A stretch of 64,000 nucleotides of DNA. It comes from Companilactobacillus heilongjiangensis. GTDB lineage: Bacteria; Bacillota; Bacilli; Lactobacillales; Lactobacillaceae. Under the pieces are notes generated by a model. It made no database searches and had not been told where the DNA came from. It worked only from the letters and a program-made list of their open reading frames with translations. A program made the position numbers and the translations under genes. The stretch spans positions 248,001-312,000 of the forward strand of contig NZ_CP012559.1 in assembly GCF_000831645.3 (NCBI RefSeq), given 5' to 3'. Positions 151 to 60,902 of this stretch are shown here, one piece after another; the stretch's first letter is position 1; each line of letters starts with the position of its first letter.

Positions 151-338
151 GCCGCCGCCTCCGGTCGACAGTGATATTAGTTCTGCTATGGGGACCGGTC
201 CGAGCCAAAATACGGTCTCGAACCTCGACTTGAGGCCTTGCAAAAACCGCAAGTCTCCAAGCTCGTCCCGTGGTGTAATGGCTAAAGCCATAACGCCACC
301 TCCATTGCAGACTAATATCACTGTCGACCTCCGGCTAG
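151..338 (-). repeat. CLR-1, cloverleaf repeat, minus orientation
   Basis: Full-length copy of the CCGGAGG-ended subgroup. P1 pairs GGTCGACAGTGATATTAGT with ACTAATATCACTGTCGACC almost perfectly. P2 is the GGTGTAATGGC type, P3 has CCTTGC/GCAAG arms, and P4 contains the GGTCTCGAACCTCG arm. It follows the upstream stop codon by 3 bases, and its left end faces CLR-2. Confidence 0.9.
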
Positions 339-374
339 TTTATTTTTTGAGTTTCTGTACTAAGACTAAATAAC

Positions 375-458
375 GCATAGTGCTAGTTTATTGCAGATGT
401 CCGCATAGATTGTATTTCAGCATATAAAATTGGTTGAACATAAAAGTAATTGAATACT
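375..458 (-). repeat. Module S copy 1 (CLR-flanking AT-rich repeat)
   Basis: The reverse complement contains TTCAATTACTTTTATGTTC, then TATGCTGAAATACAATCTATG, then a CTAGCACTATGCG block. The same ordered blocks recur at 20671-20750, 44490-44590 and, in reverse, 60610-60692. It lies next to the left end of CLR-2. No reading frame or hairpin explains it. Confidence 0.7.
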
Positions 459-485
459 TCTTATGTTCAATTAATATAGATTAAT

Positions 486-679
486 TAGTCGGAAGAGCTG
501 GGAAATATTTGTGTGCCGTGGTAGTGGTATAAGTACGGGAGGCATCTCCCGTACTTATACCACCGGGCGTGTTTGGAGCCTTGACGAACTGTGTCAAGGC
601 TTCAAACCGAGGTTCGAGACCGCTCTTTGGCTCGGACCGTTCCGCACAGCTTGAGAATATTTCCCAGCTCTGGAGACGG
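486..679 (+). repeat. CLR-2, cloverleaf repeat, plus orientation
   Basis: Full-length copy of the most homogeneous subgroup (left end TAGTCGGAAGAGCTGGG). P1 is GAGCTGGGAAATATT with AATATTTCCCAGCTC. P2 is a perfect 18-bp hairpin, GTGGTATAAGTACGGGAG with its complement. P3 is CTTGAC/GTCAAG, and P4 pairs TTCGAG with CTCGGA. The right end is 60 bases before the next start codon. Confidence 0.93.
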
Positions 680-739
680 GATATTTAATTAGCACTACAA
701 GCTAAATACCAACTATATAAAAGTCGAAGTAAATTATTT

Positions 740-1087
740 ATGAAAATTGAAGTTACTGAACAAGCACAAGCTAAATTGGAAAAATATGTTGAAGCTGATA
801 AAAAGATTCTTTTGGATCTTGATGATGGTTTTGGCCGATATTCCGATGAGGGTACTTGTGCTTTGTTAACTAAGTTTCGGATTCTTGTGCTCGATGAGGG
901 TGCTGATTTGAGTGATTATTCGGTTCATTTGGAAAGTCCAATTGGTACTATTTATTTTAAGGATAGCGCTAAAGCCTTTTTGGATGATGGGATGTCGTTG
1001 AAGGTTGATCCTAAAACACAATTATTGGTCTTCTCTAACACAAAGGAAATTATCGATAAGAGTGTTAATATAATTGATGCTAAATAG
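740..1087 (+). CDS. YqkB/HesB-like iron-sulfur biosynthesis family protein
   Basis: This 115-residue protein looks like the lactic acid bacterial branch of the FeS-biogenesis fold (YqkB-like). The fold is visible as an MKIEVTEQAQAKLEKY start, a LLDLDDG strand, an SPIGTIYFKDSAKAFLDDGMSLKVD stretch and a LVFSN strand. Genuine A-type Fe-S carriers have three conserved cysteines. Here I see only one (GTCALL), so cluster carriage is doubtful and the role is open. No strong ribosome site precedes the ATG. CLR-2 ends 60 bases upstream, so the element or its flank must form the 5' leader. Family call fairly firm, function uncertain. Confidence 0.75.
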   Translation: MKIEVTEQAQAKLEKYVEADKKILLDLDDGFGRYSDEGTCALLTKFRILVLDEGADLSDYSVHLESPIGTIYFKDSAKAFLDDGMSLKVDPKTQLLVFSNTKEIIDKSVNIIDAK

Positions 1088-1100
1088 TTAATCTTGAATG

Positions 1101-1140
1101 TATGCCAGCTGTGGTTTTGAGGAATAAGCTGGTATGTTTT
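1101..1140 (+). terminator. Weak hairpin after the YqkB-like gene
   Basis: ATGCCAGCT at 1102-1110 pairs with AGCTGGTAT at 1127-1135 and is followed by GTTTT. It could end transcription of the preceding gene. Confidence 0.45.
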
Positions 1141-1158
1141 GTAAATGTAAAATATTGA

Positions 1159-1195
1159 GGGAGCTTGGAGACGTTTGTCTTCGGGCTCCCTTTTT
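1159..1195 (+). terminator. Terminator or attenuator hairpin just before a start codon
   Basis: GGGAGC pairs with GCTCCC around an inner GGAGAC/GTCTTC stem, and TTTTT follows directly. It ends 20 bases before the ATG at 1215. That leaves no room for a promoter after it, so it may act as a leader attenuator for the next gene rather than as a simple gene end. Confidence 0.65.
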
Positions 1196-4709: not shown

Positions 4710-4884
4710 GGTTGGAAGAGCTGAGAGTATTCATCCGCAGCGAAGGTGGTGTAATGGCTTTAGCCATTACACCACCGGACGTGTTGGAGACTTGCCGGTT
4801 TTGCAAGGCTTCAACCGAGGACCGAGACCGTCCTTTGGCTCGGTCCGTCCGCGCAGCAGATGAATACTCTCAGCTCTGGAAACG
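4710..4884 (+). repeat. CLR-3, cloverleaf repeat, plus orientation
   Basis: Full-length copy of the GTTGGAAGAGCTGAGAG subgroup. P1 pairs GAGCTGAGAGTATTCAT with ATGAATACTCTCAGCTC. P2 is GGTGGTGTAATGGC with a TTTA loop. P4 shows a covarying pair: ACCGAG with CTCGGT instead of the commoner TTCGAG with CTCGGA. The right end is 61 bases before the next ATG. Confidence 0.93.
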
Positions 4885-12743: not shown

Positions 12744-12931
12744 GCCGCCACGGGTTGCGAGGAATGGAGCCTGCTGTGGGATCGGCTCGAGCCAAAGAGC
12801 GGTCTCGACCCTCGATTTTGAGCTTTGCAAAACCAGCAAGTCTCAAAATACGTCCTGTGCTGTGAGGCCGGGAGTTCACCAGCCTATCACCACTTTCACT
12901 GCAGTCTCCATTCCTCGCAACCCGTGGCTAG
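12744..12931 (-). repeat. CLR-5, divergent cloverleaf repeat, minus orientation
   Basis: A singleton variant. P1 is GGGTTGCGAGGAATGGAG with CTCCATTCCTCGCAACCC, unlike any other copy yet fully paired. P2 is rebuilt as GTGATAGGCTGGTGAACTCC with its partner. P3 shows TTTTGAG arms, and the P4 core GGTCTCGACCCTCG is kept. It lies 131 bases upstream of the TetR gene in the same orientation, and pairs with CLR-6. Confidence 0.85.
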
Positions 12932-13068: not shown

Positions 13069-13252
13069 TTAGTCGGAAGGGCTGGGAATATTTGCCAGCT
13101 GTGGGTGTGGCGTTATGGCTTTAGCCATTACACCACCGGGCGAGTTTGGAGACTTACCGGGCTTTGGTAAGGCTTCAAACCGAGGTTCGAGACCGGACTT
13201 TGGCTCGGTCCGGTCCGCATAGCAGGTAAATGTTCTCAGCTCTGTAGACGGC
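13069..13252 (+). repeat. CLR-6, cloverleaf repeat abutting a start codon
   Basis: Full-length copy with a P2 of GTGGCGTTATGGC type and P3 arms CTTACC/GGTAAG. The P1 match is looser (GAGCTGGGAATATTT-like with AAATGTTCTCAGCTC). The right end is only 25 bases from the helicase ATG at 13278, leaving room for the ribosome site but no promoter, so it must be in the 5' UTR or contain the promoter. Confidence 0.9.
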
Positions 13253-18224: not shown

Positions 18225-18404
18225 CCGTTTCCAGAGTTGAGAGTATTCATTCTGCTGCGCGGCACGGCTCGAGCCAAAGTGCGGTCTCGAACCTCGGTTG
18301 AAGCCTTTCCAAAATACGGAAAGTCTCCAACACGTCCGGTGGCGTAAGAGCTAAAGCTCTAACGCCACTTTCGCTGCAGATGAATACTCTCAGCTCTTCC
18401 AACT
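18225..18404 (-). repeat. CLR-7, cloverleaf repeat, minus orientation
   Basis: Full-length copy of the GTTGGAAGAGCTGAGAG subgroup. P1 pairs GAGTTGAGAGTATTCAT with ATGAATACTCTCAGCTC. P2 is GGCGTAAGAGC with a TAAA loop, a covarying form of the ATGGC version. The right end faces the dehydrogenase start, and the left end faces CLR-8 about 200 bases away. Confidence 0.92.
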
Positions 18405-18600: not shown

Positions 18601-18794
18601 TAGTCGGAAGAGCTGGGAAATATTTGTGTGCCGTGGTAGTGGTATAAGAACGGGAGATTCCTCCCGTTCTTATACCACCGGACGTGTTTGGAGACTTGAC
18701 GAACTTTGTCAAGGCTTCAAACCGAGGTTCGAGACCGCTCTTTGGCTCGGACCGTTCCGCACAGCTTGAGAATATTTCCCAGCTCTGGAGACGG
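18601..18794 (+). repeat. CLR-8, cloverleaf repeat, plus orientation
   Basis: Near-identical to CLR-2. P2 reads GTGGTATAAGAACGGGAG with a full complement: relative to CLR-2 the fifth stem pair T-A became A-T on both arms. It lies 133 bases before the YitT start. Confidence 0.93.
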
Positions 18795-20614: not shown

Positions 20615-20657
20615 CTGTCTACAGAGCTGGGAAATATTTCCCAGTTCCTCCGACTAG
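20615..20657 (-). repeat. CLR-9, internal-deletion derivative
   Basis: Only 43 bases remain: the right end (TGTCTACAGAGCTGGG), a single P1 hairpin and the left end (CCTCCGACTAG). Everything from P2 to P4 is gone, so the two arms of P1 now form a short stem-loop, GAGCTGGGAAATATTTCCCAG-like. Position and orientation match full copies placed after gene ends. Confidence 0.85.
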
Positions 20658-20815: not shown

Positions 20816-20980
20816 TTTATTTTAAAAATTGAATTAGTTGGAAGAGCTTAGAATATTCATATGCCGCGAAAGTGGCGTTATGGCTTTAACCATTACACCA
20901 CCGGGCGTGTTGGAGGCTTGCCGGGTTTGCAAGGCTTCAACCGAGGTACGAGACCGTACTTTGGCTCGGACCGTACCGCG

Positions 20981-22866
20981 GTGCGCCTGGCATGGGCGTT
21001 AACTTAGAGGTGAAAGTCCTCTGTGAACCGTAGTAGTCGGAATCACTAGCTTAGGACAAGGGTGTCCATCGTGAGGTGGAATCTGAAGGAAGTCCAAGGC
21101 AAAGTACCGAGCTGATGTACAAGAAGTGGCTATAAGGCTGGATTTGCAGGATAAGGGTGCCGCGGAATTCAAATCCGATCACTACTGCAAGGGCAAATCA
21201 AGTAGAGCCAACAGCTACATGGTACGAAAGTTAACGTTCTTACCCAGGGAGGTCTGTATCGAATGTCTGGCAAGGACTCGAAATGAGTCCTACAGACAAA
21301 TTAGGCCGTGATGTCTAACTGAACGATGCAGAAGTCAGCAGAGGTCATAGTAGTCGCTTTGCGACGAAGGACTGAACATTAATAATTCTTTTCGATATTG
21401 GAGGTGGAAGCGATGCGACAATCGCAGAAAATAGAATGTAAATTCGACCATTTTAATGCTCACATATGTGAACAAATGATGGTACGTAGCGCCGCTTCTG
21501 GCGAAAATACGAATAAGAATGGCATTTCATTTAAGCAACTAGTTTTAGATGAAAATAATCTCAATAGAGCCTATAAGCGAGTCAAGGAAAACAAGGGTGG
21601 AGCTGGCATAGATGGAATGACTGTCTATGACTTGTTCGACTATATTCGTAAGAACAAGGAAGCACTACTTAAGTCCTTAAGTGATTCAACTTATAAACCT
21701 AGCCCCGTCAAAAGGGTAGAAATACCTAAGCCAAATGGGACTATGCGTAAGCTTGGTATACCAACAGTCTTCGACCGTGTGGTACAACAAGCAGTGGCGC
21801 AGGTTATGAGCCCTATCTTTGAGAAAATCTTCTCTAACAACAGCTTTGGATTTAGACCAAATCGAAGTGCCCATGACGCAGTAAAACAGGTTGTGAGTTT
21901 TTACAAGCAAGGCTATCACGTTGTGATAGACCTTGACCTAAAGTCTTACTTCGACACGGTGAACCATGATTTACTTATCAAGTTCATCAAGCAATATACT
22001 GATGATGAATGGTTGTTAAATCTAATTCGTAAGTTCCTAACCAGTGGCGTAATGGATGGAAAACTATTTCAAGAAATGGAAAAAGGTACGCCTCAAGGCG
22101 GTAACCTTTCTCCACTCTTGGCCAACATATATTTAAATGAGCTGGACAAGTTATTGACCACCCGTGGTCATAAATTCGTCCGCTACGCTGATGACTGTAA
22201 TATTTATGTCAAAAGTAAACGAGCAGGAAGAAGAGTCCTGAATAGTATTTCAAGGTTCCTAGAAAGTGGTTTAAAGCTAACTTTAAACCAAGAAAAGACC
22301 AAAATTACAGTGCCAACAAAGTCAAAGTTTTTAGGATTCTCTTTAGGCTTTACCAACAAGGGCGTATGTTTACGCCCGAGCTATCAAGCCGAAAAGAGGG
22401 TCAAGCAATCGCTAAGAAAACTCACAAAGAGGAATCGAGGTCGAAAGCTTGAAGTTATCCTGAAAGAAATAAGACAAAAGATGGTTGGATGGCTCAATTA
22501 CTATGGAATTGGTGCGATGAAGGATTTTATCAGAAAACTTGATTCTTGGTTGCGAGCACGTATTAGACAATATATTTGGAAGTCATGGAAAAGACCCAAA
22601 GCAAAGTATAGGAAGTTGGTTAAATTAGGCGTGACACGGCGTCAAGCGTTTATCTGTGCAAACTCCAGTAAAGGATACTGGCGAACAGCGCACAGCAGTG
22701 TGGTGCAACACGCCCTAAGCAAGAAAAAGCTAGAATCTTTTGGCCTAATAGACATGACCAAAAGACTCCAGTCTTTGCAAAATGCTTAAATTAATGAACC
22801 GCCGTATACGGAACCGTACGTACGGTGGTGTGAGAGGTCGGTATCGTGAGATACCTCCTACTCGAT
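20981..22866 (+). mobile_element. Complete group II intron inserted in CLR-10
   Basis: 1886 bases. The 5' end GTGCGCC fits the GUGYG consensus, and the 3' end is CTCGAT. An ORF for the maturase lies in domain IV. Domain V (22797-22830) has the expected hairpin with a CGC triad at 22800-22802 facing GTG at 22825-22827. A domain VI stem (GGTATC/GATACC region) follows, with a candidate branch A at 22860. The CGC triad and insertion beside a stem-loop resemble group IIC introns, but the protein (YADDCNIYV) may belong to another bacterial class. Boundaries are fixed by comparison with intact CLRs. Confidence 0.93.
21413..22789 (+). CDS. ltrA: Group II intron reverse transcriptase/maturase
   Basis: 458 residues. 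Reverse transcriptase motifs in order: GIDGMTVYD, PVKRVEIPKPNGTMRKLGIPT, VVQQAVAQV, FGFRPNRSAHDAV, VIDLDLKSYFDTVNHD, GTPQGGNLSPLLANIYLNELD, FVRYADDCNIYVKS (catalytic YADD) and LNQEKTKI. A maturase X domain with GWLNYYGIGAM follows. I see no HNH endonuclease domain (no Cys-Cys pairs at the C-terminus), so integration would rely on nicked or single-stranded targets. ATG 21413 follows GGAGGTGGA. The frame is intact, so the intron may be active. The codon use is close to that of its neighbours. Confidence 0.93.
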   Translation: MRQSQKIECKFDHFNAHICEQMMVRSAASGENTNKNGISFKQLVLDENNLNRAYKRVKENKGGAGIDGMTVYDLFDYIRKNKEALLKSLSDSTYKPSPVKRVEIPKPNGTMRKLGIPTVFDRVVQQAVAQVMSPIFEKIFSNNSFGFRPNRSAHDAVKQVVSFYKQGYHVVIDLDLKSYFDTVNHDLLIKFIKQYTDDEWLLNLIRKFLTSGVMDGKLFQEMEKGTPQGGNLSPLLANIYLNELDKLLTTRGHKFVRYADDCNIYVKSKRAGRRVLNSISRFLESGLKLTLNQEKTKITVPTKSKFLGFSLGFTNKGVCLRPSYQAEKRVKQSLRKLTKRNRGRKLEVILKEIRQKMVGWLNYYGIGAMKDFIRKLDSWLRARIRQYIWKSWKRPKAKYRKLVKLGVTRRQAFICANSSKGYWRTAHSSVVQHALSKKKLESFGLIDMTKRLQSLQNA

Positions 22867-23032
22867 CAGCAGATGAATATTCTAAGCTCTGGAAACGGAA
22901 AACGGCAATAAACTCAATATAACGCCAACCAATGTTGCTATTATTTGATGGTCGTTATAATATTTCCCTAGATATTAAAAATAAATGGTTTAAAATACAT
23001 ATTATGATTATAAGATGAGGATGTTTTATTTA

Positions 23033-24916
23033 ATGCATAAAAAAATTAATGTCTTAGGAATTTTGCAGATACTATTTATGATAGCATCGTCTTTCGCTGT
23101 GGGGATTGTTTTAAACTACGCTCAAACTAATGATTTTCTATTTACAATGTCAATCGTACTGTTAAGTAATTTGAATACGTATTTATTAACCGTCTTGATT
23201 TTATTTATAATTTATTTGGGGTTATATGGATTATTCAATCGATTTTTCTATGCTTCAGCGTTCTACTTTATCTTCTTTTTGATTTACGCTGTGGCCGATC
23301 GTTTGAAAGTTACTTATCGTTCCGAACCCGTTTTGCCAAGTGATCTCTTACTATTGAAGAACATCAAGAGTTTGATGTCAATGGTAACGGCGAAGCTAAT
23401 TGTTGCGATGATTGTCGTATTTATCGTGGCAGTTGGCTTGTTTATCTTGTTAGAACGTCATTTTGGAAAGTTAACAATGCGTTTTAGACCCGTTACAAGA
23501 CTGATCTTTATTGCGTTGACTGCTTTCAGTATCGGGATATTTTATACAGCCAGTGATACTAATTCAGCAACTTATAAAATCTTAGCTGCAACGGGTTACA
23601 CAAATTTGGACTCAAATATTAATAAATCAGCTAATACTAATGGTCCAATGCTGACGTTTTTGGGCAATATTCACGTCGATATTATGGATAAACCGAAAGG
23701 TTACAACAAACAAGCGATGGAAGATATTGTTAAGGAATATCGCAGAGAAGCTAAGAGTATCAATAAAGACCGTGATAACAACAATTTGAGCAAGCAAACA
23801 TTAATTTTTGTGTTAAGTGAAAGTTTCTCTGACCCAAATCGTGTGCCTAATATTAAGATGAATCAAGATCCAATGCCTAATATTAGAAACATCAAGGACA
23901 ATACAACTTCAGGATTGATGATGAGTTCTGGCTACGGCGGTGGGACTGCCAACATGGAGTACATGGCTTTGACCGGTTTGGCGATGAATCAATTTTCCGA
24001 TACCTTGCAATCGCCTTATACACAAGTTGTTAACAAACAAGATGATCCTATCAATATTTCTAATAACTTTAAGACTTCTGCGGCTATTCATCCTTATCAC
24101 GGTAACTTTTATAATAGAAATTCAGTCTATAGAAGTTTTGGAATCCAATCCTTTAGAAACCTTGATACTAAAGGGGATTTAGCACTTAAATACACCAACA
24201 CAATTCCGGGAATGGAATATATTAGTGATGATTCAGCCTACAAAGATGCGCTTTGGCAAATCAATCAAACAAGTGGCGGTCAATTTATCAATTTGATAAC
24301 GATGCAAAATCACATGCCATATTTGAACCAATATGCAAAAAATGACTTTAAGAATACTGGCTCAGGTGTGCTGGATAAGACGCGTGATCAAGTTAATAAT
24401 TATGCTAAAGGCGTCAGCATCACCGATACCGAAACCAAAGATTTTTTGGCTAAACTGGACAATATTAAAAAGCCAATTACGATTGTCTGGTACGGCGATC
24501 ATTTGCCAGGTATTTACGATAATGACAATATGTATGAATACAATGTTCCTGAACATGAGACGGACTATTTTATTTACAGTAATAAGTATGCTCGAGACCA
24601 CAATTACGGAACAACTAAACTAACTGATGCGACTGAAGTAACTGATCCGAACGGGTTTATTCCATTAGCATTGAAACAAATGAATCAAAAAGTCACACCT
24701 TATTATGCTTTATTGACTAAAGTACAAGAAGAAGTACCTGCGATGGCTAAAAACGTTGCCGAGGGTAGCAATTCATTGTACGTCAACAAGGATAGTAAGG
24801 AAGTAACTACGAAGGATATGACGGCTAAGCAAAAGAAATTGATTCGTGATTATGAATTGGTTCAATATGATTTAACAGCCGGCAAGAATTATTCAAAGGC
24901 CACTATCAACAAGTAG
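23033..24916 (+). CDS. LtaS-like phosphoglycerol transferase (sulfatase fold), copy 1
   Basis: 627 residues. Five N-terminal membrane helices (to ~residue 190) precede an extracellular alkaline-phosphatase-like domain. Active-site parts: LIFVLSESFSDP (metal-binding Glu), SSGYGGGTANMEYMALTG (nucleophilic Thr), HPYHGNFYNR, and VWYGDHLPG (metal-binding Asp-His). The family moves glycerol-phosphate units onto glycans or teichoic acids. ATG 23033 is favoured by alignment with copy 2 and by GAGGA 11 bases upstream; in-frame ATGs at 23015 and 23021 exist. CLR-11 starts at the base after the stop. With dltXABCD in the same window, a lipoteichoic acid theme is plausible. Confidence 0.87.
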   Translation: MHKKINVLGILQILFMIASSFAVGIVLNYAQTNDFLFTMSIVLLSNLNTYLLTVLILFIIYLGLYGLFNRFFYASAFYFIFFLIYAVADRLKVTYRSEPVLPSDLLLLKNIKSLMSMVTAKLIVAMIVVFIVAVGLFILLERHFGKLTMRFRPVTRLIFIALTAFSIGIFYTASDTNSATYKILAATGYTNLDSNINKSANTNGPMLTFLGNIHVDIMDKPKGYNKQAMEDIVKEYRREAKSINKDRDNNNLSKQTLIFVLSESFSDPNRVPNIKMNQDPMPNIRNIKDNTTSGLMMSSGYGGGTANMEYMALTGLAMNQFSDTLQSPYTQVVNKQDDPINISNNFKTSAAIHPYHGNFYNRNSVYRSFGIQSFRNLDTKGDLALKYTNTIPGMEYISDDSAYKDALWQINQTSGGQFINLITMQNHMPYLNQYAKNDFKNTGSGVLDKTRDQVNNYAKGVSITDTETKDFLAKLDNIKKPITIVWYGDHLPGIYDNDNMYEYNVPEHETDYFIYSNKYARDHNYGTTKLTDATEVTDPNGFIPLALKQMNQKVTPYYALLTKVQEEVPAMAKNVAEGSNSLYVNKDSKEVTTKDMTAKQKKLIRDYELVQYDLTAGKNYSKATINK

Positions 24917-25101
24917 GTTGCTTCCGGTTGGCAGTGATTTTTTACCAGCTATGAGGACCGGCTCGAGCCAAAGTGCGGTCTCGACCCTCGATTTGAAGCC
25001 TTGCAAAACCGGCAAGTCTCCAAAGTCGTCCTGTGGTGTAAGAGCTAAAGCTCTAACGCCACTTTCACAGCAGGTAAAAATCACTGCCAACCTCCAGCTA
25101 A
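24917..25101 (-). repeat. CLR-11, cloverleaf repeat touching a stop codon
   Basis: Full-length copy. P1 pairs GGTTGGCAGTGATTTTTTACC with GGTAAAAATCACTGCCAACC (arms of about 20). P4 shows GGCTCGAGCC. It starts immediately after the TAG of the LtaS-like gene, whose terminator comes only at 25174, so it is transcribed in that 3' UTR. Confidence 0.93.
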
Positions 25102-25173
25102 ATGTGTTTCTTAATCAAGAAGTTTTAGTATACATAATTATCGTATTCTAGAAGAAAACATCATCAACATATT

Positions 25174-25213
25174 AAAAATGTGAATTTCATTTATTGGAAT
25201 TCACATTTTTTTA
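25174..25213 (+). terminator. Rho-independent terminator downstream of CLR-11
   Basis: AAAAATGTGAATT pairs with AATTCACATTTTT, then TT. It ends the first LtaS-like transcript beyond the element. Confidence 0.9.
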
Positions 25214-25290
25214 TTACATTAATTTTAGAGTACCGTTGAAAATGGGTTACTATATAAGTTATTGAATTAATAAATAAGGGTGTTTTTATT

Positions 25291-27177
25291 ATGCATAAAA
25301 ATAAATCTAATATCTTCTTACATTGTCTGCAAATATTCTTTATTATTCTATCGGCGTTTATTGTCGGTTATCTACTGAACTATTCGCAGACTGGAATCTT
25401 CGAAATGACTAACGGTATTTTGTTCAAAACAAATGTCGTTCCATATTTAATAACGGCCTTGATTTTAACGTTACTGTATTTAGGTGTGTACGGATTGTTT
25501 AATCGCTTTTTCTATGCGACTGCCGTATTTTACGTATTCTTTGCGATTTATATTGTGGCAAATAAATTAAAAGTTATGTACCGCTCAGAGCCAGTGTTAC
25601 CAAGTGATTTGGGATTTCTGTCCAACGCTAAAGAAATGCTCTCAATGATCAGTGGCAAAGTGGTTTTGATTGTCGTTTCCGTCATTTTACTGGTCGTTAC
25701 AGCTTGTGTAATTTTGGAGAAGATTTTCTCGAATAAGTTATGGCGTTTTAACATCGTTACAAGAGTTGTCCTAGTGGTTTTGGCAATTTCAAGTATTGGT
25801 GTCTTTTATAACGTTAATAAAGAGGGCTCAACCATTAATAAGTTGATGACGAAAGCTGGCTACTCTAATTTCACGCCAAATATCAGTATGACGGCCACAA
25901 CTAATGGACCGCTGTTAACCTTTTTAGGCAATATGCATGTCGATATTATGGATCAACCAAGTGGCTATAATAAGACAGCTATGAAAAATCTTGTTACTAA
26001 ATATCAAAATGTTGCTGATAATATTAATCAAGATCGTCCCAATAATAATTTGAGCGACCAAACATTGATCTTTGTTTTGAGTGAAAGTTTTGCTGATCCA
26101 AGTCGAGTACCAAATATTAAAATTAGTTCAGAAGCTGCACCCAAGATTATGAATATCAAAAAGGAAAATACTTCTGGATTGATGCTCAGTTCGGGTTATG
26201 GCGGGGGAACTGCCAATATGGAATACATGACTTTCACCGGCTTGGCATACAATCAATTTTCGAAATCGTTACAATCTCCATATACGCAGCTGGTTACGAA
26301 ACAAGATCACCCAGTCAATATCGTCAATAGTTTCAAGAAGTCGGCGGCCATTCACCCATTCCACGGAAACTTTTACGACCGTCAGACGGTATATCCAAAA
26401 TTTGGTTTCCAAAGTTTTCGCAATATTGATTCTAAAGGAAAACTAGCACTCAAATATACCGATACAATCGGCAATAATCCTTATGTCAGCGATGAAGCCT
26501 CTTACAAAAATACTTTGTGGCAAGTTAATCAAAATAAAGGGGGTCAATTTATAAGTTTGGTCACGATGCAAAATCACATGCCTTATAACGTTATGTATGA
26601 CAATAATCAATTTACCGTAACGAATGGTAAAGGTGCTGAGATTCCACTGCAAGTAGGAAATTATGCTAAAAGTATTAATTTTACTGATAATTCAACCCAA
26701 GATTTCTTGGATAAGTTAGATACAATCAAGAAACCAATTACTGTTGTTTGGTACGGCGACCACTTGCCAGGCTTGTACGCTAAGAATTCAATGAATGATT
26801 ATAACGTCATTCAGCACGAAACAGATTACTTTATATATAGTAATAAATATGCGATTGACCATAATTATGGAACCAAGAAGTTAACTGATTCAACCAAAAT
26901 AACCGATCCAAACGGTTTCATTCCGTTGGCGTTGAAACAGATGAATCAACAAGTAACACCTTACTATGCTCTATTAACAAAGGTTCAAGAGAAGATACCA
27001 GCAATGGCGAAAAACAGTGTTGGAGAGAATGAGAATCTCTATGTGGATTCCAATAGTAAGCAAGTTTCAACAAAGGATTTAACAGAATCACAGAAGAAAT
27101 TGTTGCATGATTACAAACTAGTCCAATACGATTTAACAGTCGGCAAAGATTATAGTAAAGCAACAATTAATAAGTAA
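25291..27177 (+). CDS. LtaS-like phosphoglycerol transferase (sulfatase fold), copy 2
   Basis: 628 residues, paralogous to the gene at 23033 along its whole length and with the same last residues (YSKATINK). It has five N-terminal helices, then the extracellular catalytic domain with LIFVLSESFADPSRVPNIK, SSGYGGGTANMEYMTFTG (Thr nucleophile), HPFHGNFYDR and VWYGDHLPG. A start at 25291 fits AAGGG placed 12 bases upstream, as in copy 1. The two copies are separated by CLR-11 and a terminator, so each has its own transcript. A division of labour (primase and polymerase, or two different polymers) is possible but unproven. Confidence 0.87.
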   Translation: MHKNKSNIFLHCLQIFFIILSAFIVGYLLNYSQTGIFEMTNGILFKTNVVPYLITALILTLLYLGVYGLFNRFFYATAVFYVFFAIYIVANKLKVMYRSEPVLPSDLGFLSNAKEMLSMISGKVVLIVVSVILLVVTACVILEKIFSNKLWRFNIVTRVVLVVLAISSIGVFYNVNKEGSTINKLMTKAGYSNFTPNISMTATTNGPLLTFLGNMHVDIMDQPSGYNKTAMKNLVTKYQNVADNINQDRPNNNLSDQTLIFVLSESFADPSRVPNIKISSEAAPKIMNIKKENTSGLMLSSGYGGGTANMEYMTFTGLAYNQFSKSLQSPYTQLVTKQDHPVNIVNSFKKSAAIHPFHGNFYDRQTVYPKFGFQSFRNIDSKGKLALKYTDTIGNNPYVSDEASYKNTLWQVNQNKGGQFISLVTMQNHMPYNVMYDNNQFTVTNGKGAEIPLQVGNYAKSINFTDNSTQDFLDKLDTIKKPITVVWYGDHLPGLYAKNSMNDYNVIQHETDYFIYSNKYAIDHNYGTKKLTDSTKITDPNGFIPLALKQMNQQVTPYYALLTKVQEKIPAMAKNSVGENENLYVDSNSKQVSTKDLTESQKKLLHDYKLVQYDLTVGKDYSKATINK

Positions 27178-27285: not shown

Positions 27286-27476
27286 TAGTCGGAGGAGCTG
27301 AGAGCGAGTATTCACGTGCAGTGAAAGTGGCGTTACGGCTTTAGCCGTTACACCACCGGGCGAGTTTGGAGACTTACCGGTCTTTGGTAAGGCTTCAAAC
27401 CGAGGTCTGAGACCGTACTTTGGCTCAGGCCAGTCCGCACAGCAGGCGAAATACTCGCTCTCAACTCCGGAGACGG
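27286..27476 (+). repeat. CLR-12, cloverleaf repeat, plus orientation
   Basis: Full-length copy of the GAGCTGAGAGCGAGTATTC subgroup. P1 pairs with ATACTCGCTCTCAACTC. P4 is a strong covariation case: GTCTGAG with CTCAGGC, where most copies have CGAG with CTCG. P2 is ACGGC/GCCGT. It lies 98 bases before the exporter start. Confidence 0.93.
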
Positions 27477-30403: not shown

Positions 30404-30586
30404 GGTCCGCTCCGGTCGTCAGTAATATAGTCCTGTTATGGGACTGGCTCGAGCCAGAGAGCGGTCTCGACCCTCGATTTTGAGCTTCGCAAAGTGCGCG
30501 AATCTCAAAATTCGTCCTGTGGTGTAACGGCTAAAGCCGTAACGCCACCTTCACAGCTGGACTATATTACTGACGACCTCCGCTTA
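30404..30586 (-). repeat. CLR-13, cloverleaf repeat, minus orientation
   Basis: Full-length copy. P1 pairs GGTCGTCAGTAATATAGTCC with GGACTATATTACTGACGACC exactly over 20 bases. P3 has TTTTGAG/CTCAAAA arms with a GCG/CGC tip. P2 is ACGGC/GCCGT. It pairs with CLR-14. Confidence 0.93.
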
Positions 30587-30748: not shown

Positions 30749-30940
30749 TTAGTCGGAAGAGCTGAGAGCGAGTATCACATGCTGTGGGTGTGGCGTTACG
30801 GCTTTAGCCGTTACACCACCGGGCGAGTTTGGAGACTTTCCGAACTTTGGTAAGGCTTCAAACCGAGGTACGAGACCGCACCCCAGGTTCGGACCGGTCC
30901 GCATAGCAGGCGAATACTCGCTCTCAGCTCTGGAGACGGC
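30749..30940 (+). repeat. CLR-14, cloverleaf repeat, plus orientation
   Basis: Full-length, GAGCTGAGAGCGAGTAT subgroup, P1 closed by ATACTCGCTCTCAGCTC. P4 is partly decayed (GCACCCCAGGTTCGG replaces the usual loop). The right end is 106 bases before the permease start. Confidence 0.92.
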
Positions 30941-32669: not shown

Positions 32670-32686
32670 TTTGTTTTTTTAGGTAT

Positions 32687-32871
32687 GCCGCCGAAGGTGA
32701 TCAGTAATGTAGTTCTGCTATGGGGACCGGCCCGAGCCAAAGAGCGGTCTCGAACCTCGATTTGAAGACTTACTAAAGTTCGGTAAGTCTCCAAACTCGT
32801 CCCGTGGTGTAATGGCTAAAGCCATAACGCCACCTCCATTGCAGACTGCATTACTGAACACCTCCGGCTAG
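32687..32871 (-). repeat. CLR-15, cloverleaf repeat in a 3' UTR
   Basis: Full-length copy, 17 bases after the permease stop and upstream of its terminator at 32947. P1 pairs GTGATCAGTAATGTAGT with ACTGCATTACTGAACAC, with two mismatches. P3 arms are GACTTAC with GTAAGTC. Confidence 0.92.
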
Positions 32872-33125: not shown

Positions 33126-33139
33126 AGTAAGCGCTTAAT
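33126..33139 (+). promoter_or_regulatory. cre-like (CcpA) palindrome upstream of permease copy 2
   Basis: AGTAAGCGCTTAAT is a near palindrome that matches the core of catabolite-responsive elements (TGWAANCGNTNWCA) except in the last two bases. It lies 118 bases before the permease start, in a 270-base leader that otherwise holds only a small CAATC/GATTG hairpin. Confidence 0.4.
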
Positions 33140-33256
33140 TTTTTTGATATTTTTAAATCATTTTTCTACTATTTATTTTTAAATATTGTATATTTGAAGT
33201 AACCGTTAGGTGAATAAATTTGGAAGAATGATTTATTTTCACTTGAGGAAAACGCC

Positions 33257-35103: not shown

Positions 35104-35284
35104 TAGTTGGAAGAGCTGAGAGTATTCATCTGCAGCGAAAGTGGCGTTAGAGCTTCAGCTCTTACACCACCGGACGTGTTGGAGACTTTCCGCCTTTTGG
35201 AAAGGCTTCAACCGAGGTTCGAGACCGTCCTTTGGCTCGAGCCGTGCCGCGCAGCAGAATGAATACTCTCAGCTCTGGAAACGG
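35104..35284 (+). repeat. CLR-17, cloverleaf repeat, plus orientation
   Basis: Full-length GTTGGAAGAGCTGAGAG subgroup copy. P1 pairs GAGCTGAGAGTATTCATCTG with the ATGAATACTCTCAGCTC arm. P2 is GTTAGAGC with loop TTCA, and P3 is GACTTTCC with GGAAAGGC. It shows the uninterrupted CCGCGCAGCAG site that the intron splits in CLR-10. Confidence 0.93.
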
Positions 35285-38856: not shown

Positions 38857-38869
38857 TTTGTTTTTTTTA

Positions 38870-38958
38870 GAACTGAGATTATTTATCTGCCGTGCGGAGC
38901 TGACCGAGTTCAAGAGCAGCCTCGAAACTTGGTTGAATACTCTCAATTCTTCCAACTA
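38870..38958 (-). repeat. CLR-18, internal-deletion derivative
   Basis: About 89 bases. The right P1 arm (GAACTGAGATTATTTATCTG), a shrunken P4 (CCGAGTTCAAGAGC) and the left P1 arm (GAATACTCTCAATTCTTCC) are present; P2 and P3 are missing. It faces CLR-19. Confidence 0.8.
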
Positions 38959-39032: not shown

Positions 39033-39226
39033 TAGTCGGAAGAGCTGGGAAATATTTGTGTGCCGTGGTAGTGGTATGAGTACGGGAGGAATCTCCCGTA
39101 CTCATACCACCGGACGTGTTTGGAGACTTGACGAACTGTGTCAAGGCTTCAAACCGAGGTTCGAGACCGAACTTTGGCTCGGACCGTTCCGCACAGCTTG
39201 AGAATATTTCCCAGCTCTGTAGACGG
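39033..39226 (+). repeat. CLR-19, cloverleaf repeat, plus orientation
   Basis: Full-length, nearly the same as CLR-2 and CLR-8. P2 is GTGGTATGAGTACGGGAG with CTCCCGTACTCATACCAC: compared with CLR-2, A-T became G-C on both arms. The right end faces the 3' end of codB. Confidence 0.93.
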
Positions 39227-42178: not shown

Positions 42179-42254
42179 AACGGGGAACGAAAAAAATCGA
42201 AATTATTAAATAAGGGCAAGTATATATTATTTACGTGTGGTGTTAGTTAAATAT

Positions 42255-42362
42255 GCCGTCTCCAGAGCTGGGAAATATTCTCAAGCTGTGCGGAACGGCC
42301 CGAGCCAAAGTGCGGTCTCAGACTACCACGGCACACAAATATTTCCTAGCTCTTCCGACTAA
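42255..42362 (-). repeat. CLR-20, internal-deletion derivative
   Basis: 108 bases. Both ends and all of P1 (AGCTGGGAAATATT with AATATTTCCTAGCT) remain, plus half of P4 (GGCCCGAGCCAAAGTGCGGTC). P3 and P2 have been lost by one deletion joining P4 to the CTACCACGGC segment near the left end. Confidence 0.9.
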
Positions 42363-42371
42363 TTAATCGTT

Positions 42372-42452
42372 ATTATTAGAGTGTAAAAGTATTCAAGCAA
42401 TTTTAGGCTATGAAATGTCTGTAGTAGGTTATCAACTAGCACCATGCGTATA
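42372..42452 (+). repeat. Module S, partial copy
   Basis: AAAAGTATTCAAGCAATTTT and, later, TTATCAACTAGCACCATGCG match parts of the module at 44490-44590. It lies next to the left end of CLR-20. Confidence 0.5.
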
Positions 42453-42496: not shown

Positions 42497-42683
42497 TAGC
42501 CGGAGAGTTCGAGGAAAAAAGGTGCCAGCAGTGGCAGTGGTGTTATGGCTTTAGCCATTACAGCACAGGACGTCTTTTGAAATTCGCGGTTTTTGCGAAG
42601 TTCAAAAACGAGGGTCGAGACCGTATTTTGGCTCGAGCCGGTCCCACAGCAGGCAACTTTTCTCCCTCGAACTCGGAGGCGGA
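42497..42683 (+). repeat. CLR-21, divergent cloverleaf repeat, plus orientation
   Basis: Singleton. P1 is GAGTTCGAGG with CCTCGAACTC, P3 is TTTTGAAATTCGC with GCGAAGTTCAAAA, and P4 is GGGTCGAG with CTCGAGCC. None of these stems shares sequence with other subgroups, yet all pair. It ends 31 bases before the alarmone synthetase start, so it forms the leader or supplies the promoter. Confidence 0.9.
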
Positions 42684-44273: not shown

Positions 44274-44468
44274 GCCGTCTAGAGAGCTGGGAAATATTCT
44301 CAAGCTGTGCGGAACGGCCCGAGCCAAAGAGCGGTCTCGGGCCTCGGTTTGAAGTCTTACCACAGACCGGTAAGTCTCCAAACTCGTCCGGTGGAATAAG
44401 TACGGGAGGAATCTCCCGTACTTATTCCACTACCACGGCACACAAATATTTCCCAGCTCTTCCGACTA
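44274..44468 (-). repeat. CLR-22, cloverleaf repeat, minus orientation
   Basis: Full-length member of the CLR-2 subgroup. P2 has GGAATAAGTACGGGAG with CTCCCGTACTTATTCC: the usual GTAT/ATAC pairs became GAAT/ATTC on both arms. P3 is CTTACC with GGTAAG. Confidence 0.93.
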
Positions 44469-47482: not shown

Positions 47483-47667
47483 CCGCCTCCGGTTGGAAGT
47501 GATTTTTTGCCAGCTATGGGGACCGGTTCGAGCCAGAGTACGGTCTCGAACCTCGCTTTGAAGCCTTTCCACAGACCGGAAAGTCTCCAAAGTCGTCCCG
47601 TGGAGTAAGGACTAAAGTCCTAACTCCACCTCCACAGCAGGCAAAAATCACTTCCAACCTCCGGCTA
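47483..47667 (-). repeat. CLR-24, cloverleaf repeat touching the treR stop
   Basis: Full-length. P1 pairs GGTTGGAAGTGATTTTTTGCC with GGCAAAAATCACTTCCAACC. P2 is GGAGTTAGGAC/GTCCTAACTCC-like, changed on both arms from the common form. P4 pairs GGTTCGAG with CTCGAACC perfectly. It lies between the stop and the treR terminator. Confidence 0.94.
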
Positions 47668-47921: not shown

Positions 47922-48095
47922 TAGCCGGAGGTTGTCAGAAATATAGTCTGCAGTGAGGGTGGTGTTATGGCTTTAGCCATTACACCACGGGGCGAGTTTG
48001 GAGACTTGCGGTTTTTGCAAGGCTTCAAATCGAGGCGCGAGACCTTGGCTCGTGCCGGTCCCCACCGCAGAACTATATTTCTGACAACCGTAGGC
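47922..48095 (+). repeat. CLR-25, cloverleaf repeat facing a gene end
   Basis: Full-length. P1 pairs GGTTGTCAGAAATATAGTCTGC with GCAGAACTATATTTCTGACAACC. P4 is shortened but covaries: GCGCGAG with CTCGTGC. The right end lies 1 base from the stop codon of the minus-strand regulator. Confidence 0.94.
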
Positions 48096-56867: not shown

Positions 56868-57048
56868 GCCGTCTCCAGAACCGTGAATATCCACCTGCTA
56901 TGCGGACCGGTCCGAGCCGAAGTGCGGTCTCGAACCTCGATTTTGAGCTTCGCAAAGTACGCGAATCTCAAAACTCGCCCGGTGGTGTAATGGCTAAAGC
57001 CATAACGCCACACCCACAGCGGGTGGATATTTACGGTTCTTCCGACTG
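56868..57048 (-). repeat. CLR-27, cloverleaf repeat, minus orientation
   Basis: Full-length singleton. P1 pairs GAACCGTGAATATCCACCTGC with the GGGTGGATATTTACGGTTC arm. P3 is TTTTGAGCTTCGC with GCGAATCTCAAAA. P4 contains GGTCCGAGCC. It faces CLR-28. Confidence 0.93.
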
Positions 57049-57214: not shown

Positions 57215-57395
57215 TAGTCGGAAGAGTTGAGAGTATTCATATGCCGCGAAAGTGGCGTTAGAGCTTTAGCTCTTACACCACCGGGCGTGTTGGAGACTTT
57301 CCGGTCTGTGGAAAGGCTTCAACCGAGGTTCGAGACCGTACTGTGGCTCGGACCGTACCGTGCAGCAGATGAATACTCTCAGCTCTGGAGATGGC
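57215..57395 (+). repeat. CLR-28, cloverleaf repeat, plus orientation
   Basis: Full-length. P1 pairs GAGTTGAGAGTATTCAT with ATGAATACTCTCAGCTC, P2 is GGCGTTAGAGC with a TTTA loop, and P3 is CTTTCC/GGAAAG. Right end 161 bases before the acyl-CoA dehydrogenase. Confidence 0.93.
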
Positions 57396-58680: not shown

Positions 58681-58689
58681 GAGGATATT

Positions 58690-59487
58690 ATGAAAATTGT
58701 CGTTTGTATTAAACAAGTACCAGAAACTACTAATGTGAAGATTAATGAGAAAACTAAGAATATCGATCGTCGTGGTTTAGGTGGCGTAATCAATTCCTAT
58801 GACCTACATGCTTTGGAAACCGCTTTGGAAATTAAACGTAATGTCGGTGGTGAAGTTATCACAATGACTATGGGTCCAGATGACTTTGCTGTTTCATTGC
58901 GTGAGACTTTGGCTTTGGGTGCTGACAGTTCAGTATTATTGTCCGACCGTGCCTTTGCCGGAGCAGATACTTTGGCAACTGGTTATGTACTTGGAAAAGC
59001 CATTAAAAAAATTGGCGATGTCGATTTAGTTTTGCTAGGTCAACAGTCAGTCGATGCCGATACGGGACAAGTGGGACCAATTATGGCCGAGCTATTACAA
59101 GTACCTCAAGTAACTTATGCTAATGAAGTTGTCGCCGAAAATAATCAATTATTGATCAAACGTAACTTGGATAATATGGCTCAAGAAATTACTGCACAGT
59201 TGCCATTATTGCTGACGGTTACTGATACTATCAACCAACCACAGTATACGAATGTCGTTGAAATTACTAAGAGTTTTGCAAAACCAATTACAACTTGGCA
59301 TGCCAGTGATCTGCAACTTGATGACAGTCGTGTAGGTCAAGCCGGTTCACCAACAATTGTTCGTTCAATCTCTTCACCAGAGAAAACAGCTAAGGTTGGA
59401 CATAAATTGGCCGACAATCCGAGAGAAGCTGCCGCCGAATTAGTAGCTGCTTTGAAGAAACAAAATATATTAGCGGAGGAAGATTAA
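58690..59487 (+). CDS. etfB: Electron transfer flavoprotein, beta subunit
   Basis: 265 residues. KIVVCIKQVPETTNVKINEK is the classic start, LETALEIKRNVGGEVITMTMGP and ALALGADSSVLLSD-like stretches follow, and DLVLLGQQSVDADTGQVGPIMAELL is the signature with the nucleotide site (GQQSxDxDTGQVGP). The QS/DTGQVGP loop binds AMP in simple ETFs and FAD in bifurcating ones; which applies here cannot be settled by eye. Ribosome site AGGAGG. Stop overlaps nothing; etfA starts 1 base later. Confidence 0.93.
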   Translation: MKIVVCIKQVPETTNVKINEKTKNIDRRGLGGVINSYDLHALETALEIKRNVGGEVITMTMGPDDFAVSLRETLALGADSSVLLSDRAFAGADTLATGYVLGKAIKKIGDVDLVLLGQQSVDADTGQVGPIMAELLQVPQVTYANEVVAENNQLLIKRNLDNMAQEITAQLPLLLTVTDTINQPQYTNVVEITKSFAKPITTWHASDLQLDDSRVGQAGSPTIVRSISSPEKTAKVGHKLADNPREAAAELVAALKKQNILAEED

Positions 59488-59488
59488 G

Positions 59489-60457
59489 ATGACAGTGATT
59501 AAGGAAAACTGGGTTTTTGTGGAAACTGATTTACATAAGATTAATCCGGTTAGTTATCAATTGATTACAAAAATGAAACAAATCAGTCATGACCCTGTCG
59601 TAGCAGTCTTGATTGAAAATAACGATGCTAATTTAGAGACAGAATTATCTGAATATGGTCCTGATAAGATTTTGCTGATTAAAGATGATGAATTAGAAGC
59701 CGGTGACGATCTAGAATTAACCGACGCTTTGAACAAGTTGATCCAAAAACAAGGCACTCCAAATACTTTTATCTTTCCAGCTACAGTGGTGGGACGTTCA
59801 GTGGCACCAAGATTACAAGCAAGATTGAGAACTGGTTTGACAGCTGACTGTTTGGACCTCAAGTTTGAAGACGACTTGTTAGTTCAAACGAAACCATCTT
59901 ACGGTGACAACATTATGTGTGAAATAACGATTCCAAATCACCATCCACAGATGGCCACAGCCCGTCCCAATGTCTTTACAGCTGAGAAGGAAAACAATCC
60001 TGCCCTTAAAGTAGAAGAAATAAGTAATCTTGACTGGGAAAAAGACACTAAATTACAAATTAAGAGCCAGATTTTGCCACCAAAAACAAGTAATGATATT
60101 ACTCAAGCTCAAAGAATCGTTGCTTTAGGACGAGGGGATAAAACAGATGCTGGAATTGATATGGCTAATAGCTTAGCTAAAAAGCTTCATGCAACAGTTG
60201 GTGTAACCCGTCCATTGACAGACTTAGATCAGTACACAATTACTGAACAAATTGGTCAAAGTGGTCAAACAGTGGCTCCAGATTTATTGATTAATTTAGG
60301 AGTTTCTGGAGCAGTCCAATATACAGCCGGAATTGCGAACGCTAAAACGGTTGTTTCAGTCAATACTGATGAAAATGCTCAAATCTTCAAATATTCCGAT
60401 TATTACTTCGTAGGGAATGCTTTGGAATTTTCAAAAGCACTCGAAGCAATACTATAG
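59489..60457 (+). CDS. etfA: Electron transfer flavoprotein, alpha subunit
   Basis: 322 residues. The N-terminal half has the ETF alpha fold (TFIFPATVVGRSVAPRLQARLRTGLTADC), and the C-terminal FAD domain shows VALGRGDKTDAGIDMANSLAKKL, IGQSGQTVAPDLLINLGVSGAVQYTAGI and VVSVNTDENAQIFKYSDYYFVGN, the standard FAD-binding signatures. With EtfB it carries electrons from the dehydrogenase encoded upstream. No ETF-quinone oxidoreductase lies nearby. A terminator follows the stop. Confidence 0.93.
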   Translation: MTVIKENWVFVETDLHKINPVSYQLITKMKQISHDPVVAVLIENNDANLETELSEYGPDKILLIKDDELEAGDDLELTDALNKLIQKQGTPNTFIFPATVVGRSVAPRLQARLRTGLTADCLDLKFEDDLLVQTKPSYGDNIMCEITIPNHHPQMATARPNVFTAEKENNPALKVEEISNLDWEKDTKLQIKSQILPPKTSNDITQAQRIVALGRGDKTDAGIDMANSLAKKLHATVGVTRPLTDLDQYTITEQIGQSGQTVAPDLLINLGVSGAVQYTAGIANAKTVVSVNTDENAQIFKYSDYYFVGNALEFSKALEAIL

Positions 60458-60483
60458 AAAAACTGAAATTCAATGTGTAATCA

Positions 60484-60518
60484 AAAAGCTGACAACTAAA
60501 AATTGTCAGTTTTTTTTG
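60484..60518 (+). terminator. Rho-independent terminator after etfA
   Basis: AAAAGCTGACAA pairs with TTGTCAGTTTT, followed by TTTT. Confidence 0.9.
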
Positions 60519-60609
60519 TGCATATGGGTTTAACACATTATAGGAAGTTTTAGGGGGTTAGATATTATTGATACGAATGTATAAAATGCGGAGATCGACC
60601 TGAATTTAA

Positions 60610-60692
60610 ATTACAGATAACATTAGCATCAATTATATTTCAGTATTTAAAATGGTCTGAGTACAAAAGCATTAGAATATTTTTATATTCAC
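60610..60692 (-). repeat. Module S copy 4
   Basis: The reverse complement contains TATTCTAATGCTTTTGTAC, TAAATACTGAAATATAATTG and ATGCTAATG, matching copies 1-3 in order. It lies next to the left end of CLR-29. Confidence 0.65.
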
Positions 60693-60708
60693 TTAATAAC
60701 AAATAATT

Positions 60709-60902
60709 AGTCGGAAGAGCTGGGAAATATTTGTGTGCCGTGGTAGTGGTATGAGTACGGGAGAAGCCTCCCGTACTCATACCACCGGACGTGTTTGGAG
60801 ACTTGACGAACCGTGTCAAGGCTTCAAACCGAGGCCCGAGACCGTATTTTGGCTCGGACCGTTCCGCACAGCTAGTGAATATTTCCCAGCTCTGTAGACG
60901 GC
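60709..60902 (+). repeat. CLR-29, cloverleaf repeat, plus orientation
   Basis: Full-length, CLR-2 subgroup. P2 is GTGGTATGAGTACGGGAG with a full complement. P1 is broken by one change at right (GCTAGTGAATATTTCCC). Right end 291 bases upstream of opuAA. Confidence 0.92.

What the first reader, a model, noticed from the sequence alone, without database searches (positions are those of the whole stretch)
151..60902. A dispersed family of cloverleaf-folding intergenic elements with strong covariation
About 22 full-length copies of 175-195 bp share an architecture: P1 closing stem, then hairpins P2, P3 and P4. The paired sequences differ widely between copies, but the pairing is kept. P1 includes GAGCTGGGAAATATT, GGTCGTCAGTAATATAG, GAACCGTGAATATCC and GGTTGTCAGAAATATAG, each with its own complement. 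P2 tips include ATGGC/GCCAT, AGAGC/GCTCT, ACGGC/GCCGT and AGGAC/GTCCT. P3 tips include CTTGAC/GTCAAG, CTTACC/GGTAAG, CTTTCC/GGAAAG and TTCGC/GCGAA. P4 includes ACCGAG/CTCGGT, GTCTGAG/CTCAGGC and GCGCGAG/CTCGTGC. Compensatory change on this scale points to selection for a folded RNA or single-stranded DNA. I know of no described family of this shape in lactobacilli.
Basis: partly seen in the sequence, partly recalled or inferred. Interest (0 to 1): 0.93.

Follow-up and report, generated by a model that had tools for sequence, protein, structure and literature searches.

The report
Paired cloverleaf mobile repeats in lactobacilli
Hundreds of short, elaborately folded, gene-less DNA elements have spread through the spaces between genes of a Companilactobacillus and its relatives; young copies carry the marks of a jumping element, and much of the matched change in their closing stem looks like one arm of a hairpin copied from the other rather than selection alone.

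Summary
In detail: 21 full copies plus partial ones in the window, with very strong covariation, also in an alignment made without the structure. The P4 core matches 467 times in the genome. A covariance model finds the family in 67 of 301 family genomes, 9 of 40 genera, and in no other genome of a 398-genome class sample. Rfam has no match to it in the window.

Young copies are MITE-like mobile units, mostly 290-405 bp: TIRs, 8-9-bp target duplications (25 of 33 TIR pairs; 2% by chance), an AT-rich 5' extension, the cloverleaf. One TIR type also bounds three IS982-family insertion sequences; a second type carries the same cloverleaf.

Covariation has two sources. P1 arms change together as blocks, as if one arm were copied from the other. 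The inner core favours G-T over A-C, so its sense strand is constrained, though private changes show no bias. Close neighbours are head-to-head in 113 of 125 cases, unexplained. Function is inferred: element propagation.

The parts
157..335 (-). full cloverleaf copy (GCC.GGA P1 type)
373..702 (+). mobile unit around copy 488-677: left TIR ACGCATAGTGCTAGTT at 373-388, 5' extension, cloverleaf, degenerate right TIR to about 702
488..677 (+). full cloverleaf copy (GAGCTGGGAAATATT type, long P2)
4711..4883 (+). full cloverleaf copy
12747..12928 (-). full copy whose outer P1 arms are perfect complements (no GGA/GGA loop)
13072..13249 (+). full cloverleaf copy, mate of 12747-12928
18227..18403 (-). 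full cloverleaf copy
18603..18792 (+). full cloverleaf copy, mate of 18227-18403
20617..20656 (-). P1-only remnant (internal deletion between the P1 arms)
   Evidence: read directly
20837..20980 (+). 5' part of a copy interrupted by a group II intron
20981..22866 (+). group II intron with ORF 21398-22789 (not searched against protein families) inserted in the cloverleaf; boundaries approximate
   Evidence: Rfam RF02001, RF01998, RF00029
22867..22896 (+). 3' end of the interrupted copy (approximate start)
   Evidence: read directly
24920..25098 (-). full cloverleaf copy
27288..27474 (+). full cloverleaf copy
30409..30584 (-). full cloverleaf copy
30752..30937 (+). full cloverleaf copy, mate of 30409-30584
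32690..32868 (-). full cloverleaf copy
35106..35282 (+). full cloverleaf copy
38869..38948 (-). truncated copy
39035..39224 (+). full cloverleaf copy, mate of 38869-38948
42233..42449 (-). mobile unit with both TIRs around a truncated cloverleaf (42258-42359); 9-mer AATATATAC at both ends
42499..42680 (+). full cloverleaf copy, mate of the unit above
44277..44466 (-). full cloverleaf copy
47485..47665 (-). full copy starting 3 nt after a stop codon (47482)
47924..48095 (+). full copy, mate of 47485-47665
56871..57046 (-). full copy downstream of dltD
57217..57392 (+). full copy, mate of 56871-57046
60710..60899 (+). full cloverleaf copy

Best explanation
A family of MITE-like, non-autonomous mobile elements of Lactobacillaceae. 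Shown: young units have terminal inverted repeats, 8-9-bp target duplications, a 5' extension and a conserved cloverleaf with sense-strand bias; one TIR type is shared with IS982-family insertion sequences of relatives, another TIR type carries the same cloverleaf. Inferred: such transposases move the units in trans into non-functional space between stop codon or terminator and the next promoter; the cloverleaf is kept because it helps the element propagate (as single-stranded DNA or as an element RNA), not because it regulates neighbours. P1 arms are largely homogenised by template switching within hairpins formed in vivo, which creates much of the compensation; constraint on the sense strand of inner stems supplies the rest. 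Head-to-head pairing probably reflects which double insertions survive: tandem copies collapse, and tail-to-tail copies would form a long palindrome with a short spacer.
For: TIR pairs and target duplications: 25 of 33 TIR pairs match at 8 or 9 of 9 flanking bases, null 2.0%. Second TIR type around the same cloverleaf: of 11 units checked, 5 have exact 8-9-bp duplications, 2 exact 7-mers, 4 none. IS982-family elements with type A TIRs and no cloverleaf inside: L. brevis CD0817 (1046 bp, NF033520 E=2.9e-60) and, by homology to it, G201 and C. nantensis G275. Turnover: of 238 conserved gene adjacencies between own and G320, 22 are occupied only in own, 12 only in G320, 33 in both. Arm copying: copies with >=90% core identity but different, matched P1 arms (13 of 163 copy pairs); P1 has the highest pair-type diversity and only 2.8% wobble; 34 of 141 copies have a fully complementary loop triplet, 16.5 expected: GGA/TCC in either direction 21 vs 16.0, other triplets 13 vs 0.5. 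Sense strand: G-T 431 vs A-C 70 in own, 196 vs 26 in relatives. Mobility-stage selection: one-copy variants 17 vs 15; single copies lie + 16 and - 15 relative to transcription in co-directional gaps.
Against: Recognisable TIRs remain in few copies: 19 hits of type A and 19 of type B among 432 copies, none among 51 L. brevis and L. suantsaiihabitans copies, so mobility of the rest is extrapolated. No IS982 homologue was found in the own genome. Some sites counted as empty in G320 hold visible remnants, so part of the turnover is decay. At one orthologous site in five Secundilactobacillus genomes pairing is kept through double changes, and in the closest pair the element is more alike (91.5%) than its flanks, which suggests constraint, or gene conversion, after insertion. 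The excess of GGA/TCC loops alone is small (21 vs 16.0). Collapse of tandem copies as the reason for pairing is a guess: mates are only about 58% alike.
Confidence: 0.7

Rival explanations
1. Host-beneficial structured RNA or DNA at transcription-unit borders (boundary, supercoil sink, protein site), spread by mobility but kept by the host.
For: 3' end nearer the flanking ORF in 129 of 140 copies; head-to-head in 113 of 125 close neighbours in many genomes; pairing kept at an orthologous site; structure intact where TIRs are not recognisable.
Against: The 3'-nearer bias is largely what the long 5' extension and short 3' tail of the unit would give; singles are oriented at random relative to transcription (16 vs 15); private variants show no strand bias; occupancy differs between related species.
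Confidence: 0.15
2. Unidirectional terminator or insulator: the antisense strand forms a hairpin followed by a T-rich tract.
For: T enrichment just outside the 5' end in antisense (about 6.6 per 12 vs 4.4 background).
Against: The T tract is the same in copies downstream of stops and upstream of starts; 17 of 30 copies lying within 20 nt of a stop still have a terminator-like hairpin beyond the element, vs 11 of 74 copies upstream of starts; where there is room (30 nt or more), 18 of 28 have one before it. The wobble excess is on the sense strand.
Confidence: 0.05
3. Purely mutational palindromes: all covariation comes from hairpin-arm copying, no selection on structure at all.
For: Block changes of P1, conversion of the loop to complements, few wobble intermediates in P1; template switching is reported to homogenise inverted-repeat arms (PMC8604942, abstract in search listing).
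Against: Inner stems keep specific mismatches across copies (A.G in P3, bulged A in P4) and have a strong G-T over A-C excess, which symmetric arm copying cannot give; the model matches in 9 genera.
Confidence: 0.1

Closest known systems
BOX elements of Streptococcus pneumoniae and S. suis (PMC3049150, passages read)
   Same: Interspersed, mostly intergenic, strongly folded; TIRs and target duplications reported; proposed mobilisation by an IS with similar TIRs (ISSpn2); repeats found in clusters.
   Different: BOX is modular (A-B-C); here one cloverleaf core, hundreds of copies, at least two TIR types, head-to-head pairs, spread in Lactobacillaceae. Sequence relation to BOX was not tested.
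Bacterial MITEs in general, e.g. QMITE2 of Coxiella burnetii (PMC10969869, passages read)
   Same: TIRs, short direct repeats (7-9 bp for QMITE2), folded transcript predicted, intergenic.
   Different: Here the core is structurally conserved over 9 genera and rides on at least two TIR types; the core is GC-richer than the genome.
IS982-family insertion sequences
   Same: Type A TIRs (ACGCGTGGTGCTAGTT) bound IS982-family elements in three genomes.
   Different: The units have no transposase gene; the cloverleaf is absent from these three insertion sequences.
SSRC8 small RNA of Streptococcus (Rfam RF02616; PMC3675131, passages read)
   Same: About 60 nt resembling the P3 region; two genomes of the same order carry a structure, matched once in each, between genes read as infB and rbfA (recalled) that matches both our model and RF02616.
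   Different: Below Rfam's gathering score (33.5 of 72); no match of RF02616 in the window.
REP/BIME elements
   Same: Extragenic palindromes in alternating orientation (abstracts in search listings).
   Different: REPs are 20-40 bp with GTAG/CGTC tags (PMC3733652, abstract in search listing); here about 180 nt, TIRs with target duplications; RAYT genes not searched.

Membership tests
MITE | terminal inverted repeats | tested here: met
   33 TIR pairs in 31 of 40 loci fetched because of TIR matches; in an unselected set 19 type A and 19 type B hits in 432 copies, controls 0 and 2
MITE | target-site duplication on insertion | tested here: met
   25 of 33 TIR pairs with 8-9 of 9 matching bases; 2.0% when flanks of different units are combined
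MITE | short and without transposase | tested here: met
   TIR pairs 101-422 bp apart, the shortest too short to hold the core
MITE | TIRs shared with an IS that could mobilise it | tested here: met
   IS982-family elements in L. brevis, G201 and C. nantensis; none found in the own genome
MITE | AT-rich | tested here: not met
   cloverleaf core mostly 0.47-0.60 GC in a window of 0.35-0.39; spacers 0.25 GC. Named as typical, not as essential, in PMC10969869 and PMC3049150 (passages)
MITE | actual transposition | not testable with these tools
   -
BOX element | boxA/boxB/boxC modules | not tested
Rfam SSRC8_2 (RF02616) | score at or above the gathering threshold | tested here: not met
   no hit in the window; 33.5 bits against 72 at locus L273
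REP/BIME | 20-40-bp palindrome with tag tetranucleotide and RAYT transposase | tested here: not met
   core 172-190 nt, with TIRs and target duplications; RAYT not searched

The most novel reading that the evidence does not exclude
The cloverleaf itself is the selfish unit: a strand-specific folded DNA (or RNA) module that is captured by different transposase ends, spreads to hundreds of copies per genome, re-makes its closing stem by copying one arm from the other, and settles head-to-head at the borders of transcription units.
Probability: 0.25. Interest if true: 0.85.

Novelty: new variant of a known kind. Interest (0 to 1): 0.64.

Why it matters
It is a very abundant repeat family in lactic acid bacteria: 467 matches to its P4 core in one 2.79-Mb genome. 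It suggests that textbook-looking covariation can come largely from hairpin-arm copying, a caution for RNA discovery by covariation, and gives two tests that help to separate the causes (wobble strand bias split by how many copies share a variant; conversion of a mismatched loop to complements). It also offers a natural system to study IS982-type trans-mobilisation and the stability of inverted repeats in bacteria.

Tried and rejected
Pair as one composite transposon: rejected as the usual case, because spacers of 42 pairs are mostly not homologous, mates are no more alike than random (0.580 vs 0.597) and single units with their own TIRs and target duplications exist. One pair (genome 407010-407638) does look like a single insertion against G320, and a pair present in G175 is absent in G288.

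Terminator/insulator: not supported. Avoidance of sense transcription: not supported, singles + 16 / - 15. 3'-end-toward-gene rule: real as a count (129 of 140; gene borders from my own ORF script) but largely explained by unit asymmetry. Reuse of sites: 22 of 40 same-orientation comparisons between own and G320 have homologous 3' flanks, yet the elements are only 0.68 alike (background 0.65), so conversion and re-insertion cannot be told apart. L. reuteri plasmid copy next to an IS30 transposase: not pursued. TIR search in plasmids gave only short matches with best E-values of about 2 to 7 in the rows listed. One search was a badly designed pattern search (nothing learned). A TIR scan of 2.38 Mb of fetched DNA gave 13 candidate pairs 700-4000 bp apart: L092 and L247 are the IS982 elements, the ORFs tested in five others (L015, L034, L068, L115, L120) are host-type or without family, the rest were not pursued. 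A hunt for more vertically inherited copies in G175/G288 gave a presence/absence case but no orthologous copies that I analysed.
Full report

Scale and range. The window is part of a 2,790,548-bp chromosome. The pattern CGAGACCGNNCTTTGGCTCG with up to 3 mismatches matches 467 times, control 1. R1 finds 141 distinct copies in 444 kb of the own chromosome. R1 matches 67 of 301 genomes of the family, own included, 9 of 40 genera; 19 of 395 of an order sample, two of them in another family with one match each; and 1 of 398, the own genome, of a class sample. These large searches use stricter filters that lose weak matches. A capped list of named records holding the P4 pattern has Companilactobacillus, Levilactobacillus, Lactiplantibacillus, Secundilactobacillus, Lacticaseibacillus, one unclassified Lactobacillus sp., and six records of other bacteria; the four of these six that I tested (L046, L059, L082, L086) do not match R1. 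The species name C. heilongjiangensis is recalled from genome size and not verified (one search did not help).

Mobility. The closest complete relative that I used, G320 (median protein identity 92.7%), shares 238 gene adjacencies with the own stretch: 171 empty in both, 22 occupied only in own, 12 only in G320, 33 in both; some of the 'empty' sites hold remnants that R1 does not find. Young subfamilies show the cloverleaf inside a longer unit: left TIR ACGCRTGGTGCTAGTTRA, an AT-rich extension of roughly 90-170 nt, the cloverleaf, and GGCATATTTAACTAGCACCACGCGT. In 40 loci fetched around TIR matches, 33 TIR pairs (31 loci; two loci counted twice) are 101-422 bp long, the shortest without room for a cloverleaf; 25 have 8 or 9 of 9 matching flanking bases, against 2.0% when flanks of different units are combined. 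A different TIR (CTAAAGGTTGAAAG...) bounds units in which R1 finds the same cloverleaf. Of 11 such units checked, five have exact duplications of 8-9 bp (C. huachuanensis L057 and L101, C. nantensis L091, L. angrenensis L103, L. mudanjiangensis L080), two exact 7-mers (L011, L098), four none. Only a minority of copies keep recognisable TIRs: 19 type A and 19 type B hits among 432 copies, none among 51 of L. brevis and L. suantsaiihabitans.

Transposase. Scanning 2.38 Mb of fetched DNA for TIR pairs 700-4000 bp apart gave 13 candidates. One in L. brevis CD0817 (1046 bp) holds a 298-aa IS982-family transposase (PF13612 1.1e-24; NF033520 2.9e-60). Of 13 genomes searched with that protein two match: G201 (66%), whose ends carry the TIR at 14 of 16 on both sides, and C. 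nantensis G275 (31%), where it lies inside a 961-bp TIR pair with one in-frame stop; the own genome does not. None of the three has a cloverleaf inside. So type A units are probably moved by an IS982-family enzyme in trans; in the own genome that enzyme may be lost or too distant.

Where the covariation comes from. On 141 own copies the non-Watson-Crick pairs are G-T 431, A-C 70 and other 181; on 68 copies of relatives G-T 196, A-C 26; on the window's MAFFT alignment 66 and 13. Point mutation of double-stranded DNA would give equal numbers of G-T and A-C, so the sense strand is constrained. But variants present in only one copy are 17 and 15, in up to two copies 33 and 41, in up to four 83 and 47: the bias sits in variants shared by several copies, as if selection acted on the propagating lineages. 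It is present in copies upstream (194:29) and downstream (158:41) of genes, somewhat less in the latter (p 0.049), so it does not depend on being co-transcribed in one orientation.

P1 behaves differently. It has the highest Watson-Crick type diversity (0.46; other helices 0.13-0.28) but only 2.8% wobble (P2 1.4%, P3 7.7%, P1b 9.2%). Among 163 copy pairs with at least 90% core identity, 13 have 5' P1 arms under 70% identical; the identities of the two arms go together (correlation 0.82), and in the 12 examples printed the arms are still essentially complementary. The internal loop, usually GGA opposite GGA (72 of 141), is an exact complement in 34 against 16.5 expected by independence: TCC/GGA 10 (8.0), GGA/TCC 11 (8.0), other triplets 13 (0.5). 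In G320 20 of 87, in the other relatives 4 of 68, in the named loci 24 of 142 are complements. A triple change of GGA to TCC, and matched changes to other triplets, are most simply explained by copying the other arm. This is template switching at quasi-palindromes; published work reports homogenisation of inverted-repeat arms (PMC8604942 and PMC7202029, abstracts in the listing). It implies that the P1 hairpin forms in DNA in vivo, and that covariation of P1 alone does not prove selection.

After insertion. Downstream of one gene, 5 of 11 Secundilactobacillus loci carry the element (G139, G162, G268, G115, G237). G162 and G268 are 91.5% identical in the element, 88.9% in the gene, and 73.7% and 67.1% in the two flanks counting gaps (84.8% and 86.9% without). 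Between them two pairs are compensated, one kept by wobble, four broken; both-side changes exceed independence (3 vs 0.35, p=0.0016), and so in 9 of 10 comparisons at p<0.05. This is one site; arm copying and gene conversion also produce such a pattern.

Arrangement. Of neighbours closer than 500 bp, 42 of 44 in own, 16 of 18 in G320 and 55 of 63 in other genomes after removing one double count are head-to-head with 5' ends facing; 11 are tandem, 1 tail-to-tail. Singles are random relative to transcription (16 vs 15 in co-directional gaps; pairs there 25 -+, 1 ++). Copies sit just after stop codons (median 24 nt) or about 111 nt before start codons (gene borders from my own ORF script), within the non-functional part of the gap; 17 of 30 copies within 20 nt of a stop have a terminator-like hairpin beyond them, 11 of 74 controls. 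My preferred reading is survivorship: tandem copies collapse, tail-to-tail copies make a long palindrome with a short spacer. This is not tested, and mates are only about 58% alike.

Known relatives. BOX repeats of pneumococcus are the closest in kind (PMC3049150, passages). The two order-level matches outside the family lie in the same gene context and match both R1 and, below threshold, Rfam SSRC8_2; SSRC8 was seen on Northern blots in S. pyogenes (PMC3675131, passages), so a relative of the P3 region may be transcribed in another genus. Literature searches found no description of this family in lactobacilli; the library is open-licence PMC only.

Verdict. Real, widespread, apparently undescribed; a new variant of the MITE/BOX kind. 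Mobility is well supported for young units; the role of the cloverleaf and the reason for head-to-head pairing are open.

Noticed in passing
window 20837-22896: A group II intron with an ORF of 463 aa is inserted in a cloverleaf copy, 3' of the P4 hairpin.
   Followed up: partly
L263 3501-3546, L265 1327-1372, L266 3501-3546 (plasmids of L. fermentum, L. salivarius, E. hirae): A 46-nt match to the 3' arm of P1 plus tail lies just after a group II intron maturase fragment and near vat(E) on these three plasmids; the same 46 nt match 11 further plasmid records of Enterococcus and Ligilactobacillus. This segment carries a Lactobacillaceae-type element end.
   Followed up: partly
L273 1008-1155, L274 987-1095: Cloverleaf-like structure, one match per genome, in two genomes of the same order, between genes I read as infB and rbfA, matching Rfam SSRC8_2 below threshold.
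   Followed up: partly
L275, L276, L279, L280: A subfamily of about 150 nt without P4 but with the GGA/GGA loop, P1, P2 and P3; the two G128 copies read have identical cores.
   Followed up: no
G320 intergenic regions: Another palindromic repeat family (GTGGAACAAAACATG...GCCAGTAATCC...GGATTGCTGGC) in gaps of this relative.
   Followed up: no
L247 197-1157 (C. nantensis): IS982-family element with the same TIRs whose transposase frame holds one in-frame stop.
   Followed up: partly
window 23015-27177 and 31047-34885: Two tandem gene duplications (about 70-73% identical) with cloverleaf copies between and around the paralogues.
   Followed up: no
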